Below are positions 37,999-43,700 of a stretch of 64,000 bases of DNA, in pieces. Made by a program: the position numbers and the translations under genes. Position 1 is the stretch's first letter. Each line of letters starts with the position of its first letter. This DNA comes from Thermosynechococcaceae cyanobacterium MS004 (GTDB taxonomy: Bacteria > Cyanobacteriota > Cyanobacteriia > Thermosynechococcales > Thermosynechococcaceae). The stretch covers positions 1 through 64,000 of the forward strand of contig JAKRSB010000143.1 of NCBI GenBank assembly GCA_022402525.1, written 5' to 3'. The notes beneath the pieces are model-generated. The model did not search any database. It was not told where the DNA came from and saw only the letters and a list, made by a program, of their open reading frames with translations.

Positions 37999-38826
37999 AT
38001 GGCCTTGTCTTCCAGCCTACCCATTCCCCCCCGCCCGTTCTTGAAGTGGGCAGGGGGGAAAAGCCGCCTGATTGTCCAGTATCAGCCCTTTTTGCCCCAG
38101 GCGTTTGACACCTATTACGAGCCGTTTTTGGGGGGTGGGGCGCTCTTTTTTTACCTGCGGCCCCAGCGGGCGGTCTTGTCAGACATTAATCCAGAGCTGG
38201 TGAATGTCTATACCTGCGTCCGCGATCGCGTGGAGGAGCTGATTGAGCAGTTGACGCACCATGCTGCCCACCACGGGCAGGACTACTATTATCAGATGCG
38301 CGCTGAAACTCCTGAGCCCCCTGTCGCACGCGCTGCAAGGCTGATTTATCTGAATAAAACCTGCTTTAACGGGCTCTATCGCGTCAATGCCCAAGGGCAG
38401 TTTAATGTCCCTATGGGGCGGTATAGCAACCCTAAAATTTGCGATCGCGATTTGCTCCAGGCCGCTTCCGAGGCGCTACAGTCTGCCACTATTGTGCAGC
38501 GATCGTTTCATCAGATCTTGGAGGCTAACATTACGCCCCAGGACTTTGTCTACTTTGACCCGCCCTACCAGCCCTTGAGCGTGACCAGCAACTTCACGGG
38601 CTACAGTCGAGATGCGTTTACCGCCGCGCATCAAATCCAGCTCAGAGATATTTTTGCCCAACTTGCCCAGCATCAGGTGCAGGTTTTGCTCTCCAACTCA
38701 GACTGCCCGTTTATCCGTGAGCTGTATCAGGACTTCCCCATTCAGACCATTCATGCGGCCAGAGCCATTAATGTCCATGCCCAGAAGCGCGGCAAAATTA
38801 ATGAGGTTTTAGTCACCGCTCCGTAG
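37999..38826 (+). CDS. dam: Dam-like DNA adenine methylase (D12 class)
   Basis: A 275-residue N6-adenine methyltransferase. Motif I is FLKWAGGKSRL (about 14-24) with EPFLGGGALFFYL after it; the catalytic motif IV is DFVYFDPPYQPL; ARLIYLNKTCFNGLYRVN matches the GATC-recognition region of Dam/DpnM-type enzymes. Cyanobacteria commonly methylate GATC with such an enzyme; GATC is the centre of the abundant HIP1 octamer. It starts 19 bp after sat, so co-transcription is likely. No nuclease is adjacent, which fits an orphan methylase. Confidence 0.9.
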   Translation: MALSSSLPIPPRPFLKWAGGKSRLIVQYQPFLPQAFDTYYEPFLGGGALFFYLRPQRAVLSDINPELVNVYTCVRDRVEELIEQLTHHAAHHGQDYYYQMRAETPEPPVARAARLIYLNKTCFNGLYRVNAQGQFNVPMGRYSNPKICDRDLLQAASEALQSATIVQRSFHQILEANITPQDFVYFDPPYQPLSVTSNFTGYSRDAFTAAHQIQLRDIFAQLAQHQVQVLLSNSDCPFIRELYQDFPIQTIHAARAINVHAQKRGKINEVLVTAP

Positions 38827-38877: not shown

Positions 38878-41418
38878 TCACACAATCACTTGCCAGAGCA
38901 GCACCAGTAGTCCAAGAGCAGTGAACTGATGAGGCCAGAGCTTTGTGATCGGCTGTCGGCCAATTTTTTGAATCAGTAGCCCCGTCAAGGCAGTTCCCAT
39001 CACCAAGACCGTCCCCTGCAAGAAGGCCGTCACCGCCGGATGAGCAATCAGGACGGGCAGGTTGACCCCGCGATCGCCTAGTCCAAAGGTTGCTAAGGTT
39101 ACAGGCAAAACTTGACCCGCTTCATTCAGTCCCAACCGTAGGTAATGAGCGAGGGTGCCGCAAAGCACGAGGGGGAGGTAGCCATAGGCCAATTCCAGAA
39201 AGGGTCGATGCTTCCCAGGACTCAGAAGATTTAAGAACCCTTGTCCGAACAGCGGGATGAGGGCTGCGATCGCCAAAACCGCCACAGACACTCCAGCATG
39301 GGGCCAAAATTGCGTCAGATGGAAGTCTAAGCCTAGCTTTCCTTCAATCTCAGGGAGCCGATGTAAGAAAATACCGCCCAGGAGCAGCAACAAGAGCGCT
39401 ACCTCGTGGCTGCGGGGCTGGTGAGTCGTCCAAAGTTCAATACCGGGAGGACGTAAGTTTAGCTCCACGGAGCGGTGGGGGCAGGCTTTGAGACAGGTCA
39501 TACACAACACACAGTCTCGATTGTCCACAAGCTGCGCCGGATGGGAATACAGAGGGCAGCCGAGGGTTTCTTGACCTTCGCCCTTCACGGGGCCGCCTTT
39601 ATAGCACTGGTAGGTCGTGCATTCTGCGGAGCAGGTGCCCTGCTGGGCGCGGAGTTCGGTCATGGAGAGCTTGGCAAAAAGGCCATTCATGCCGCCGATG
39701 GGGCAGAGGTAGCGGCACCAAAACCGCCGCTCAAAAATTTGAGAGCAAATCACCGCACCCGCCGTAATCAGCAACAGCAGCCAGCTTGAAAGGTAGGCCG
39801 TGTTCTCTAAGTTCCACAGTTCTTCCCATAGAAAAATCAGCGTAAATAGACCCAATAAAAACCACCCGCCCCACCGATCTGCGGTGTCTCGTGGCCAGCG
39901 CTGGAGAGTGCGCGGAAACACCTTTAGGGATAGCCACTGCATCGCTTCGCCATAAATCATGAAGGGGCACACCGCACACCACAGCCGACCCACAAAGGGA
40001 AACCCAATCAGCACTAGCGGCCACCACCAGGCCCAAAATAAATTCAGGGCGACGTTATGCTGCCGATCTTGAGGCCCCCAAAACAGCAAAAACACCACCA
40101 GCGCAAAGACGCCTAGGGTAAAGCCATAGTTAATTCTGGTCGGCCACCAGTCGCTTCTGAGAAACTGCCGCAGTTTTGGGTAGGTATTCAGTAAATTAAG
40201 GCGGAACTGCTGCTTTTTGGCTTCCGCTGGCCAAAATAGCTCGTCCGTGAGGGCACATTGCTCAGGTGCCTGGGCGATCGCGCGGCTCATGAGGCTTTGC
40301 AGTTCGGCGAGGTTTCCGGGATAGCTGTAGGCCTGAAGTCGCCGCAGGGCTTCGGGGGTGAGGGTGCGCTTGGGTTCGCCCTTGCGCTGCGCCATGAGGC
40401 TGAGATAGTAAGTAACCTGGGCTTTGAGGTCGGGTTTGCGGACACGAAGGGGCGGCACTTTAATGGTGTGTCCCATCAGGTTTTCGAGGCCGGGGATGGT
40501 TTTTTCCGCCACCAAAATCACGCGCGCCTGACTCGATTTTGGGTCAACTGCCTGGGATTCCTTCGGGCCTTCGTTTCGCCGCACCGGGATAAATGTGTTT
40601 TGCTCCAGGAGTACTGTGATCTGCGGCAGCAGGGCGGGGTCAAGCTCGTGAATATTGTTCAGCAGGATTGTGCCCATTCCCAAAGCTTCGAGCAGTCCTG
40701 GTTTGCCACCCATCCGGCCAAAAAGCTCTGCCCCGCTGACCTGTAGGGTATTGCAGTTCACCTGAATCATAGGTTCGCGGCGGCTGGGCGACCCAAAGTG
40801 AATCAGCGTGGCGATGTTGTCTTTTTCTAAACCTGGTTCGCCAAAAATTAGGACGGGTTTGCGATCGCGGGCGGCTTCTTTGATCTGCTGGCGCAGCCGT
40901 ACCGCATAGCGGCTGGTGCCCACAATGCCGCGCTTGGCTTTAGTGAGGAGGTAGGGTCTTAAAATCGCCTGACGCTCTTGCTCAAAGGCAAGCTGGGCGG
41001 ATAGCTCCACCACATCTTCGGCAAGCTGGCGCGAGACAGACTGCATCATTTCGGGAAACTGCTGGGCGATCGCCATCAGCTCAGCCTTGGGCAGCACCCA
41101 AAATTCGCAGTCTGTGAGGGTGACAATCGTATCCTGGACGGGCTGCTCCAGCAGAATTTCGGTGAGATGGAGGACAGAACCGGGCAGCAGGCTGCTAGCC
41201 AAGGCCAGACTATTGGGGCTGGTGCGATAGCGCTCTAGCCGCCCCCGCACCAAAACATAGAGCGCATTGGGCAGGGTTTGCTCTAGGATGACGCGCCGAT
41301 TTGCAGCAATGGATTCAGGCTGAAGCTTAGAGGCGATCGCTTCTAGGATGCGATCGCTCAAGGTGCCCAGCATCGTCCGCTCTTTGAGCCATTCCAAGGA
41401 GAGTCCGGGGTTAGACAT
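38878..41418 (-). CDS. Fusion of cNMP-type sensor, degenerate sigma-54-activator AAA+ domain and NapH-like polyferredoxin
   Basis: An 846-residue protein with three parts. Residues 15-130 form a cyclic-nucleotide-binding-like barrel. Residues 165-400 have the layout of a sigma-54 activator AAA+ domain, but Walker A reads GEPGLEKD (193-200), the GAFTGA loop expected after ELFG (231-234) is missing, and Walker B is ILLNN (251-255) instead of LDE. It should neither hydrolyse ATP nor contact sigma-54. From about 435 there are several membrane helices with cysteine motifs CAVCPF, CRYLCPIGG, CSAECTTYQC and CVLCMTCLKACP, as in NapH/CcoG-type iron-sulfur proteins. The whole may be a redox-coupled membrane sensor or electron carrier. 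Confidence 0.88.
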   Translation of the reverse strand: MSNPGLSLEWLKERTMLGTLSDRILEAIASKLQPESIAANRRVILEQTLPNALYVLVRGRLERYRTSPNSLALASSLLPGSVLHLTEILLEQPVQDTIVTLTDCEFWVLPKAELMAIAQQFPEMMQSVSRQLAEDVVELSAQLAFEQERQAILRPYLLTKAKRGIVGTSRYAVRLRQQIKEAARDRKPVLIFGEPGLEKDNIATLIHFGSPSRREPMIQVNCNTLQVSGAELFGRMGGKPGLLEALGMGTILLNNIHELDPALLPQITVLLEQNTFIPVRRNEGPKESQAVDPKSSQARVILVAEKTIPGLENLMGHTIKVPPLRVRKPDLKAQVTYYLSLMAQRKGEPKRTLTPEALRRLQAYSYPGNLAELQSLMSRAIAQAPEQCALTDELFWPAEAKKQQFRLNLLNTYPKLRQFLRSDWWPTRINYGFTLGVFALVVFLLFWGPQDRQHNVALNLFWAWWWPLVLIGFPFVGRLWCAVCPFMIYGEAMQWLSLKVFPRTLQRWPRDTADRWGGWFLLGLFTLIFLWEELWNLENTAYLSSWLLLLITAGAVICSQIFERRFWCRYLCPIGGMNGLFAKLSMTELRAQQGTCSAECTTYQCYKGGPVKGEGQETLGCPLYSHPAQLVDNRDCVLCMTCLKACPHRSVELNLRPPGIELWTTHQPRSHEVALLLLLLGGIFLHRLPEIEGKLGLDFHLTQFWPHAGVSVAVLAIAALIPLFGQGFLNLLSPGKHRPFLELAYGYLPLVLCGTLAHYLRLGLNEAGQVLPVTLATFGLGDRGVNLPVLIAHPAVTAFLQGTVLVMGTALTGLLIQKIGRQPITKLWPHQFTALGLLVLLWQVIV

Positions 41419-41644: not shown

Positions 41645-42442
41645 TTAGGTGCGATATTCGATAATTTCGTTCGGATCAAGTTCACTTGCTTGCACGAGCT
41701 TATAGTGTCGTTCTTCGACTATCTGTAACTGGTCATTGTCGATCTTGAGTTCAAACAGAGCAATCTGATCACTGGCGACGAACTGTGCAGAAATAGCGCG
41801 GCATCGTAAATTCGGATGCTTTTGTTTGCACCATGCGGTGTCTTGTGTCGTCTGCACAACGGAGATTTGATCCTTTCCGCCCTTGGCCTGTACAGGGATG
41901 ATGTAATGACACCCATATTTATCAATGCCGACATAAAGTTCATCGATCTCGATCTGCCCGATGTCGCGCACACTTGTCCGCAAGTGGTTCTGTAGAGAAA
42001 ATGTGGTCAGGCCAAGGAAAATATCGATTAAGCGGTTATAGCGTACCTTGGCCAGCAAGGCCTGTTCGTCGTCAAGCGCGTAAGAAGTGATAATTTCCGG
42101 TGTGCAGTCGGGGATACGGATAACTGCAAGGTTTGGATTGGGGATGATGCGGTTCTCTCTGGTCAACCGGAAACGGTATTTAGCACGGCCTACCAGTTCG
42201 ATGATCCATTCGTATCCCTCTGGCTGTGTTTCCAGAACTTTTGAAGGCATGGTAGTGCGAAAACGCAAAGAGTAAAGCACATCGCCGAGATTGCTCGGCA
42301 AGCGTATATCAAGAGTCTTTGCTGCCGTCTCCAGAGCCGTGCGTTCAAACGGAATTTCCGTAGCACCCTCAGTATATCCATCGAGAAATATCTTCTCGAT
42401 CAACTGGTTATAGCGGTTTTTAGCTTTCGCTTTATCTGCCAT
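41645..42442 (-). CDS. Putative type II restriction endonuclease
   Basis: About 265 residues, encoded directly after and overlapping a C5-cytosine methylase gene by 11 bases. The middle region carries IEIDELYVGIDKYGCHYIIPVQAKGG, which fits a PD-(D/E)xK nuclease core (acidic residues then QAK). The N-terminal half is mixed helical and strand-rich (YEWIIELVGRAKYRFRL). There is no close tie to a named enzyme, and the recognition site is unknown. Position next to the methylase is the main support for the call. ATG at 42442 (MADKAKAKN) is preferred to the upstream in-frame start. Confidence 0.75.
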   Translation of the reverse strand: MADKAKAKNRYNQLIEKIFLDGYTEGATEIPFERTALETAAKTLDIRLPSNLGDVLYSLRFRTTMPSKVLETQPEGYEWIIELVGRAKYRFRLTRENRIIPNPNLAVIRIPDCTPEIITSYALDDEQALLAKVRYNRLIDIFLGLTTFSLQNHLRTSVRDIGQIEIDELYVGIDKYGCHYIIPVQAKGGKDQISVVQTTQDTAWCKQKHPNLRCRAISAQFVASDQIALFELKIDNDQLQIVEERHYKLVQASELDPNEIIEYRT

Positions 42443-43700
42443 GAAGCACACTTTTTTGAGATTCTTCTAGTAGGCGAGGCAGGCGTGTGCGAGGAGCGAT
42501 GACGGAACTGGACACGCCGAACATAGCAGCAGCATCGGACATCGAAATTCCGATTAAACTTTCCTCACGCAGGTCTATTGTCTCACTAGGCTTTTGTGGT
42601 TTTTTTCCCAAGGCTTTCAGAATTTCCCCGCCGACAGCACGAGCCAGCAATGGCGGCACACTATTGCCGATTTGGCGGAACCCGTGCCACTTGGTTGCAT
42701 GAAATCGAAACCAGTCCGGGTAAGAGTGTAGCCGTGCCCCTTCGCGAACGGTAATAACCCGTGGGTAAGTTGGATGAATAGGGCGTGGTGAAGTGAACGC
42801 CCCGCGATCGCTAGCAGTGCCTGCCCGTAAGGTGTTGCAGATACCGTCGAGAGAAAGTTTTTTGAAGCGGCTGATTGGCTCCACATCGTCGGGAGTCGTG
42901 GCGGCGAAACGCTGGCGCGATAATTCTGTGTGATTGGTGAGTAGGGAGCAAGTCAGCACCTTGGGATCGAAGCGGCGGAGATAACCAAAATCCTGCGGGT
43001 CTTCTTTTCTTCCGCTAAGCATCGCCGCATAGTGAGAAGGCTTGCCTAATTTAACTTTTACCCAATCGCGTTCCCACAGTTCGGGAAACGCTTCCGCATC
43101 GGGAAGATCACTGATCGCTTCGCCAACCGTCGTTTGTCCTGTCGGTTGCGGATAAGTCGGCAGTTGCAGTCCAGCTCGCGCCCCCATCAAAAACAGGCGA
43201 CGGCGGTCTTGCGGAACAAAGTAATCTTTAGCATTCAGAACCTTATAGTCGGTTACAACGTCGTAACCACCTTCGCCGAATGCTTCAATAATCTCTTGCA
43301 GAAAACGTCGGTGCTTTCCTATTGTCAAGCCTTTCACGTTCTCGAAAACGAAGTATTTCGGCTTCAGCTCCATCACCAGCCGCACATAGTGATAGACAAG
43401 CTGGTTTCGACTGTCATCGAGTGCCCGTTTGCCGATTAGGGAAAAGCCTTGGCAGGGGGCACCGCCGATCACAATGTCGAGGTCGCGGCGACCGATTCCG
43501 GCGCGACGACGCAGCTCGTCTCCAGTCAGATCAACGACACTTTTGCAAATAGTCGCGCAGTTTGGGAAGTTGAATTTGTGGATGGCGCAGTGGATTGGAT
43601 CGATATCCACTGACGCCACAATATCGAAGCCTGCTTGCTCAAAGCCAAGGCTGAGTCCACCCGCACCTGCGAATAGATCAATCCCGATCGGTCTTGTCAT
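42432..43700 (-). CDS. DNA (cytosine-5-)-methyltransferase
   Basis: A 422-residue C5 methylase with motifs in the standard order: I IDLFAGAGGLSLGFEQAGF (5-23), IV GGAPCQGFS with the catalytic cysteine, VI FVFENVKGL, VIII QDRRRLFLMGAR, a target-recognition region, then IX-X (RLHSYPDWFRF, GFRQIGNSVPPLLARAVG). A ~45-residue tail (MSDAAAMFGVSSSVIAPRTRLPRLLEES) resembles a helix-turn-helix and might bind DNA. Specificity cannot be read. It protects the host against the overlapping nuclease. Confidence 0.93.
   Translation of the reverse strand: MTRPIGIDLFAGAGGLSLGFEQAGFDIVASVDIDPIHCAIHKFNFPNCATICKSVVDLTGDELRRRAGIGRRDLDIVIGGAPCQGFSLIGKRALDDSRNQLVYHYVRLVMELKPKYFVFENVKGLTIGKHRRFLQEIIEAFGEGGYDVVTDYKVLNAKDYFVPQDRRRLFLMGARAGLQLPTYPQPTGQTTVGEAISDLPDAEAFPELWERDWVKVKLGKPSHYAAMLSGRKEDPQDFGYLRRFDPKVLTCSLLTNHTELSRQRFAATTPDDVEPISRFKKLSLDGICNTLRAGTASDRGAFTSPRPIHPTYPRVITVREGARLHSYPDWFRFHATKWHGFRQIGNSVPPLLARAVGGEILKALGKKPQKPSETIDLREESLIGISMSDAAAMFGVSSSVIAPRTRLPRLLEESQKSVLHGR

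What the first reader, a model, noticed from the sequence alone, without database searches (positions are those of the whole stretch)
38878..41418. Sensor, dead sigma-54-activator domain and polyferredoxin fused in one membrane protein
The central AAA+ domain has the layout of an NtrC-type activator, but the P-loop is GEPGLEKD, the GAFTGA loop after ELFG is deleted and Walker B is ILLNN. Cyanobacteria are known to lack sigma-54. The domain has probably been kept for something else, coupled to a cNMP-like barrel and to a membrane NapH/CcoG-like iron-sulfur module. A redox sensor or regulated electron carrier is possible.
Basis: partly seen in the sequence, partly recalled or inferred. Interest (0 to 1): 0.72.

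Follow-up and report, generated by a model that had tools for sequence, protein, structure and literature searches.

The report
Pseudo-AAA-gated iron-sulfur membrane protein
Cyanobacteria widely carry a membrane protein that joins an electron-carrying iron-sulfur module to a catalytically disabled copy of a gene-switch motor, which suggests that a transcription-factor engine was reused to control electron flow, probably in sulfur or low-oxygen metabolism.

Summary
Confirmed: window 38878-41418 (-) is an intact 846-aa gene for a cNMP-like barrel, a sigma-54-activator AAA+ domain and a NapH-like iron-sulfur membrane module. It is an ancient cyanobacterial family: over 60 genomes, 155 sequences examined. 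All of them lack GAFTGA. The arginine-finger segment is also deleted, Walker B is NN in 132 of 155, and the own genome has no detectable rpoN. The pocket is not decaying: GEPGLxKDN, NN and E305 are almost invariant, and Walker A Lys is invariant. Best reading: a hydrolysis-dead, possibly nucleotide-binding pseudo-AAA regulating a nine-helix, up-to-three-cluster electron carrier. It is not a transcription factor: no DNA-binding domain was found. A paralogue (group B, also in this genome) lies beside cysK in 8 of 11 genomes and on two cyanobacterial plasmids, amid sulfide/low-oxygen photosynthesis genes. That gives the first functional lead. The bare membrane module also occurs alone in Deinococcus. 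No paper on the family was found in the library searched. New variant of a known kind; mechanism moderately supported.

The parts
38878..41418 (-). whole gene, 846 aa, stop codon included
   Evidence: orthologues
41059..41313 (-). cNMP-like beta barrel (residues 36-120), no recognisable phosphate-binding cassette
   Evidence: PF00027 43.1 bits, cut-off 27.5; alignments
40453..40932 (-). AAA+ alpha/beta core of the sigma-54-activator type (residues 163-322)
   Evidence: PF00158; phmmer; Foldseek
40816..40842 (-). altered Walker A, GEPGLEKDN (residues 193-201)
   Evidence: K199 and D200 132/132, G193 132/132 in group A; K199 invariant across the 52-sequence A+B+C alignment
40702..40707 (-). junction where the 8-residue GAFTGA segment of loop L1 is missing (residues 238/239)
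   Evidence: no GAFTGA-like string in 155 homologues
40651..40674 (-). altered Walker B, GTILLNNI (residues 249-256)
   Evidence: NN in 132 of 155
40504..40506 (-). sensor I position, Glu305 in place of Asn
   Evidence: 133/133 in group A
40486..40491 (-). junction where the 11-residue arginine-finger segment is missing (residues 310/311)
   Evidence: alignment with intact activator domains; residues 310 and 314 variable
40219..40452 (-). AAA+ lid (residues 323-400)
   Evidence: PF25601 42.6 bits, cut-off 27; N369 and E372 invariant
38881..40215 (-). NapH-like membrane iron-sulfur module (residues 402-846), nine predicted membrane helices, N-terminus inside
   Evidence: net charge of loops fits positive-inside
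39964..39978 (-). CX2CP motif (C481, C484) at the cytoplasmic end of TM2
   Evidence: Cys in 153/153
39700..39717 (-). CX3CP motif (C568, C572)
   Evidence: Cys in 153/153
39481..39633 (-). ferredoxin-like cysteines C596, C600, C605, C621 and C636-x2-C639-x2-C642-x3-C646P
   Evidence: each Cys in at least 152 members, at most 1 substitution each; 91% mean identity in residues 563-660
38884..39411 (-). C-terminal membrane helices TM5-TM9 with conserved E672, H686 and E766

Best explanation
It is an inner- or thylakoid-membrane electron-transfer protein of the NapH/NosR-like kind. Its cytoplasmic front end is a sigma-54-activator AAA+ domain turned into a pseudo-ATPase: the parts that contact sigma-54, complete a neighbour's active site and cleave ATP are gone, while the cis nucleotide pocket is under strong selection in a new fixed form. 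The most likely mechanism: the pocket binds a nucleotide (or another phosphate ligand) without hydrolysing it, and the resulting conformation or oligomeric state opens or closes electron flow through two ferredoxin-like [4Fe-4S] clusters plus a possible third formed by the CX2CP and CX3CP cysteines, between the quinone pool and a cytoplasmic partner. Paralogue B does this in a sulfide/low-oxygen setting together with cysteine synthase; the window gene is the general, chromosomal version. Shown by sequence: domain order, motif losses, fixed pocket residues, 12 near-invariant cysteines, loop charges fitting N-in topology, B's gene neighbourhood. Inferred: nucleotide binding, gating, quinone as partner, cluster occupancy.
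For: Domain hits. Activator fold by Foldseek, TM 0.83. New pocket residues fixed in 130-133 of about 133 orthologues, while the arginine-finger positions vary. No DNA-binding domain among the Pfam matches. Twelve near-invariant cysteines. Fe-S region is the most conserved part: 91% mean identity against 63% for the AAA core and 47% for the barrel. Nine helices with positive-inside loop charges put the AAA domain and all Fe-S motifs on the same, cytoplasmic side. NapH-like by TIGR02163, 6.8e-16. NapH-like proteins are proposed to take electrons from a donor, probably quinol in some cases, through their clusters (PMC8238504). Group B: cysK within three genes downstream in 8 of 11 loci and immediately downstream on two plasmids, among Rieske, psbA, DsrE, rhodanese, ArsR and FAD-oxidoreductase genes. 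In an activator lacking GAFTGA (R. capsulatus NtrC), ATP binding rather than hydrolysis is what matters (PMC10274813).
Against: No biochemical data. Group A has no conserved gene neighbourhood across the phylum, so the sulfur/low-oxygen link rests on the paralogue. Walker B D to N should weaken Mg binding, so the pocket may hold something other than ATP or nothing. The Fe-S loop is poorly modelled (pLDDT below 50, residues 594-638) and the membrane module has no significant match to a solved structure. Bd-oxidase presence shows no tight co-occurrence.
Confidence: 0.4

Rival explanations
1. It is a membrane redox sensor, not an electron carrier: the Fe-S clusters read the quinone/sulfide/oxygen state and the pseudo-AAA passes the signal to a soluble partner such as a transcription factor, as GAFTGA-less activators act on sigma-70 promoters.
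For: GAFTGA-less activators with sigma-70 functions exist (PMC3162934; PMC10274813). The domain order puts the regulatory part in front. ArsR or MerR regulators lie near some group B genes.
Against: No DNA-binding domain was found. The output end of activators (loop L1, arginine fingers) is what has been lost. Twelve near-invariant cysteines plus five extra helices look like an electron path rather than a minimal sensor.
Confidence: 0.25
2. It is a metal reductase, CcoG-like, for copper or iron handling.
For: CcoG, a membrane polyferredoxin by general knowledge, reduces Cu2+ to Cu+ (PMC8456105). In Deinococcus ficus the bare module directly follows, and overlaps by 4 bp, a gene for a histidine-rich, probably exported protein.
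Against: No CcoG model among its matches up to E = 1. No copper or iron genes stood out near the cyanobacterial copies.
Confidence: 0.13
3. The AAA part is only a structural scaffold or dimerisation platform with no ligand; the conserved pocket residues form an internal network.
For: Every trans-acting catalytic feature is lost. Asp next to the P-loop Lys and Asn in place of the Walker B acidic residues could pair internally.
Against: Walker A Lys is invariant even in group B, which keeps a near-canonical GTGKT loop, so a shared phosphate-binding role is the simpler reading.
Confidence: 0.18
4. A working sigma-54 activator.
For: Pfam and NCBIfam annotate the domain as sigma-54 interacting.
Against: No GAFTGA, no arginine fingers, no DNA-binding domain found, no rpoN detected in the genome. 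Cyanobacteria were reported to lack sigma-54 and its activators (PMC3162934).
Confidence: 0.02

Closest known systems
Bacterial enhancer-binding proteins without GAFTGA (Caulobacter and Rhodobacter NtrC, VpsR, TyrR, DhaR, HupR)
   Same: Same AAA+ fold and the same kind of L1 deletion (eight residues, as reported for Caulobacter NtrC); adapted to work without sigma-54.
   Different: Those are DNA-binding transcription factors; this one also lacks arginine fingers and Walker B, has no DNA-binding domain found and is fused to a membrane Fe-S protein.
NapH/MauN family (TIGR02163) and NosR
   Same: Membrane helices with CXnCP motifs followed by ferredoxin-like cysteines.
   Different: 58.6 bits against a 213-bit cut-off. 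Carries regulatory domains in front and five more helices behind; one motif is CX2CP. No FMN-binding domain among its Pfam hits.
CcoG/RdxA/FixG cupric reductase
   Same: Membrane polyferredoxin (general knowledge).
   Different: No CcoG model among its matches up to E = 1.
CRP/FNR and other cNMP-binding barrels
   Same: PF00027 barrel above the curated cut-off.
   Different: No recognisable phosphate-binding cassette, no HTH found, and the barrel is dispensable in the family.
Stand-alone '4Fe-4S binding protein' of Deinococcus ficus (WP_027463891.1)
   Same: About 30% identity over 98% of the membrane module, with matching cysteine motifs.
   Different: No barrel and no AAA domain.

Membership tests
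sigma-54-dependent enhancer-binding protein | AAA+ fold of the activator type | tested here: met
   PF00158 over cut-off; TM 0.83 to NtrC1
sigma-54-dependent enhancer-binding protein | GAFTGA loop | tested here: not met
   8-residue deletion; absent in 155 of 155 homologues
sigma-54-dependent enhancer-binding protein | Walker B Asp-Glu | tested here: not met
   NN here; no family member keeps DE or DD at this place
sigma-54-dependent enhancer-binding protein | arginine fingers | tested here: not met
   11-residue segment missing
sigma-54-dependent enhancer-binding protein | DNA-binding domain | tested here: not met
   no HTH among Pfam matches up to E = 1
sigma-54-dependent enhancer-binding protein | rpoN in the same genome | tested here: not met
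   no PF04552 match; assembly 100% complete by the tool's estimate; controls ring as expected
sigma-54-dependent enhancer-binding protein | ATP binding | not testable with these tools
   Walker A Lys conserved, binding unmeasured
NapH/MauN family (TIGR02163) | score above the curated cut-off | tested here: not met
   58.6 bits against 213.05
NapH-like in the broad sense (Fer4_5, PF12801) | Pfam match above the gathering score in a multi-helix membrane protein | tested here: met
   28.8 bits, cut-off 22; nine helices in the model
NapH-like in the broad sense (Fer4_5, PF12801) | bound [4Fe-4S] clusters and quinol activity | not testable with these tools
   cysteines near-invariant; occupancy and donor unknown
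CcoG cupric reductase | match to a CcoG model | tested here: not met
   not among 14 matches up to E = 1
cyclic-nucleotide-binding protein | PF00027 barrel | tested here: met
   43.1 bits, cut-off 27.5
cyclic-nucleotide-binding protein | phosphate-binding cassette with Arg | tested here: inconclusive
   no cassette Arg visible in four aligned members or the solved-structure alignments, but the loop alignment is weak

The most novel reading that the evidence does not exclude
A transcription-activator AAA+ motor has been moved wholesale into bioenergetics: as a non-hydrolysing nucleotide sensor it switches a membrane multi-cluster electron path on and off, letting cyanobacteria match quinone-linked electron flow to energy charge, with a mobile copy specialised for photosynthesis under sulfide.
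Probability: 0.28. Interest if true: 0.8.

Novelty: new variant of a known kind. Interest (0 to 1): 0.56.

Why it matters
If right, it shows a sigma-54-activator domain surviving for a very long time in a phylum that lacks sigma-54, with a rebuilt pocket, inside an electron-transfer protein. It would name a function for a family found in over 60 sampled cyanobacterial genomes (496 matching contig stretches in a second collection) that databases label misleadingly as 'sigma 54-interacting' or 'nitrogen assimilation regulatory protein'. It also puts one member into plasmid-borne gene islands that look like kits for photosynthesis under sulfide.

Tried and rejected
Gene neighbourhood of group A over 94 loci: no conserved partner beyond lineage-specific ones; the neighbouring sat gene in the window was not seen beside the orthologue in the relatives whose neighbours were listed. 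Cytochrome bd as a co-occurring partner: many genomes have one without the other, and I made no formal test. Foldseek of the membrane module against the PDB: best E 0.6, meaningless. phmmer of the module against PDB sequences: only weak ferredoxin hits. Literature: nine searches found no paper on the family; the library holds only openly licensed papers. Promoter scan: 1 site found against 1.9 expected by chance.

Full report
Observation. The finding names an ORF at 38878-41418 on the minus strand; it is there, intact, 846 codons. Pfam places a cNMP barrel, a sigma-54-activator AAA+ core, its lid and a Fer4_5 membrane iron-sulfur domain in that order, each above its curated cut-off. NCBIfam gives only activators and NapH as relatives, all far below their family cut-offs.

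Anatomy of the AAA+ domain. I aligned the window protein, two paralogous groups and three intact activator domains from non-photosynthetic members of the phylum or their assemblies, and compared with solved activators. Loop L1 lacks eight residues, exactly the GAFTGA stretch. The segment that carries the arginine fingers lacks eleven. Walker B DE is NN and the sensor I Asn is Glu. Walker A is GEPGLEKD. The predicted structure keeps the activator fold (pLDDT 88; TM 0.83 to NtrC1).

Not decay. Among 133 group A sequences, G193, E194, K199 and D200 are fixed (132 of 132 with data), N254 and N255 are in 130 of 132, and E305 in 133 of 133, while the former arginine-finger region varies freely. A pocket that changed and then stayed fixed is being used. 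The trans-acting and sigma-54-contacting parts are the ones that went. In the wider family no GAFTGA-like hexapeptide was found in 155 sequences.

No sigma-54. The own genome has no match to the sigma-54 DNA-binding domain, while the control genomes expected to have it ring. In 291 genomes of the phylum two pass the cut-off: a lone domain in one Nostocaceae-like genome and a weak hit in a non-photosynthetic lineage. Francke and co-workers reported sigma-54 and its activators absent from 29 cyanobacteria (PMC3162934). GAFTGA-less activators are known: Caulobacter NtrC has an eight-residue L1 deletion, and R. capsulatus NtrC needs ATP binding rather than hydrolysis (PMC10274813). The losses alone therefore have precedents; the membrane fusion and loss of DNA binding do not, as far as I could find.

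Membrane module. Twelve cysteines are near-invariant across all groups: CX2CP (481/484), CX3CP (568/572), C596/C600/C605/C621 and CX2CX2CX3CP (636-646). That is enough for two ferredoxin-like clusters and possibly a third from the two CXnCP motifs; occupancy is inferred. The model has nine membrane helices, and loop charges across the family fit an inside N-terminus, so the barrel, AAA domain and all Fe-S motifs share the cytoplasmic side. Residues 563-660 are the most conserved part (91% mean pairwise identity, against 63% for the AAA core and 47% for the barrel). The Fe-S loop itself is modelled poorly, and Foldseek finds nothing for the module.

Distribution and family. The protein is found in over 60 sampled cyanobacterial genomes from many families, and a scan of a second collection found 496 related stretches, of which the best 80 are all cyanobacterial. 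Three groups emerge: A (this gene), B (about 40% identical, second copy in this genome on contig C64) and C (one family, without the barrel, on a long branch). Fourteen of the 155 sequences lack the barrel; some of these are fragments. The barrel is thus optional and the pseudo-AAA plus membrane module is the core. Group B keeps a GTGKT-type P-loop but also lacks GAFTGA, arginine fingers and an intact Walker B.

Context. Group A has no phylum-wide neighbour. Group B does: a cysteine synthase gene lies within three genes downstream in 8 of 11 loci from seven families, with cytochrome bd, SQR-like, HdrABC-like, nifH, flavodiiron, ArsR, TauE and D1-family genes nearby in one or more of them. On two cyanobacterial plasmids (Pseudanabaena galeata, Aulosira laxa) B and cysK stand side by side again, with Rieske protein, D1, DsrE, rhodanese, ArsR or MerR, and nitronate-monooxygenase-like genes. 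I read these as sulfide/low-oxygen islands; that label is inference. A distant NapH-like protein on a Chlorohelix plasmid also sits in a sulfur-transfer cluster. The bare membrane module occurs in Deinococcus ficus beside a histidine-rich protein, which keeps a metal-related role open.

Mechanism. I favour a non-hydrolysing ligand-binding AAA domain regulating electron flow through the Fe-S module, at 0.4. Shown: architecture, losses, fixed pocket, cysteines, B's neighbourhood. Inferred: ligand, gating, quinone partner, cluster number, and transfer of B's setting to A. Rivals are a redox sensor with a soluble partner (0.25), a ligand-free scaffold (0.18), a metal reductase (0.13) and a true activator (0.02).

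Verdict. A real, conserved, apparently undescribed fusion built from known parts: a new variant of the NapH-like kind with a repurposed activator domain. It is not a member of the sigma-54 activators, because defining features were tested and not met.

Noticed in passing
L185:1459-2067 (G152, Nostocaceae-like genome): A 202-aa ORF carrying a sigma-54 DNA-binding domain (62 bits, cut-off 22.8) with an RpoN-box-like stretch, in a phylum held to lack sigma-54. Relic, transfer or new use not resolved.
   Followed up: partly
L095:7249-9210 (G134, non-photosynthetic Cyanobacteriota): A 653-aa protein with two activator AAA+ domains in tandem (GAYTGA and GSFTNA), in a genome where the sigma-54 DNA-binding-domain search gave no match.
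   Followed up: no
L191 and L192 (plasmids of Pseudanabaena galeata and Aulosira laxa): Plasmid-borne islands that combine group B, cysK, a Rieske protein, a D1 protein and persulfide-handling genes: possibly a mobile kit for photosynthesis under sulfide.
   Followed up: partly
L080:6806-7960: A photosystem reaction-centre (D1-family) gene directly upstream of group B in another cyanobacterium; variant type not determined.
   Followed up: no
L194:5461-6399 (Chlorohelix allophototropha plasmid): NapH-like 4Fe-4S protein inside a cluster of TusA, DsrE, rhodanese, glutaredoxin, TrxB, MBL-fold and TauE genes.
   Followed up: no
L190:8042-8968 (Deinococcus ficus plasmid): Histidine-rich, probably exported protein whose gene overlaps the stand-alone membrane module by 4 bp.
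   Followed up: no
L189 (G161): The NtrC-like gene in this gut-type genome has neighbours that look like Bacteroidota genes; possibly a contaminating contig.
   Followed up: no
window 37999-38826 and 42432-43700: DNA methyltransferase genes (Dam-like and cytosine-5 type) near the gene on both sides; identity judged by eye from the translations.
   Followed up: no
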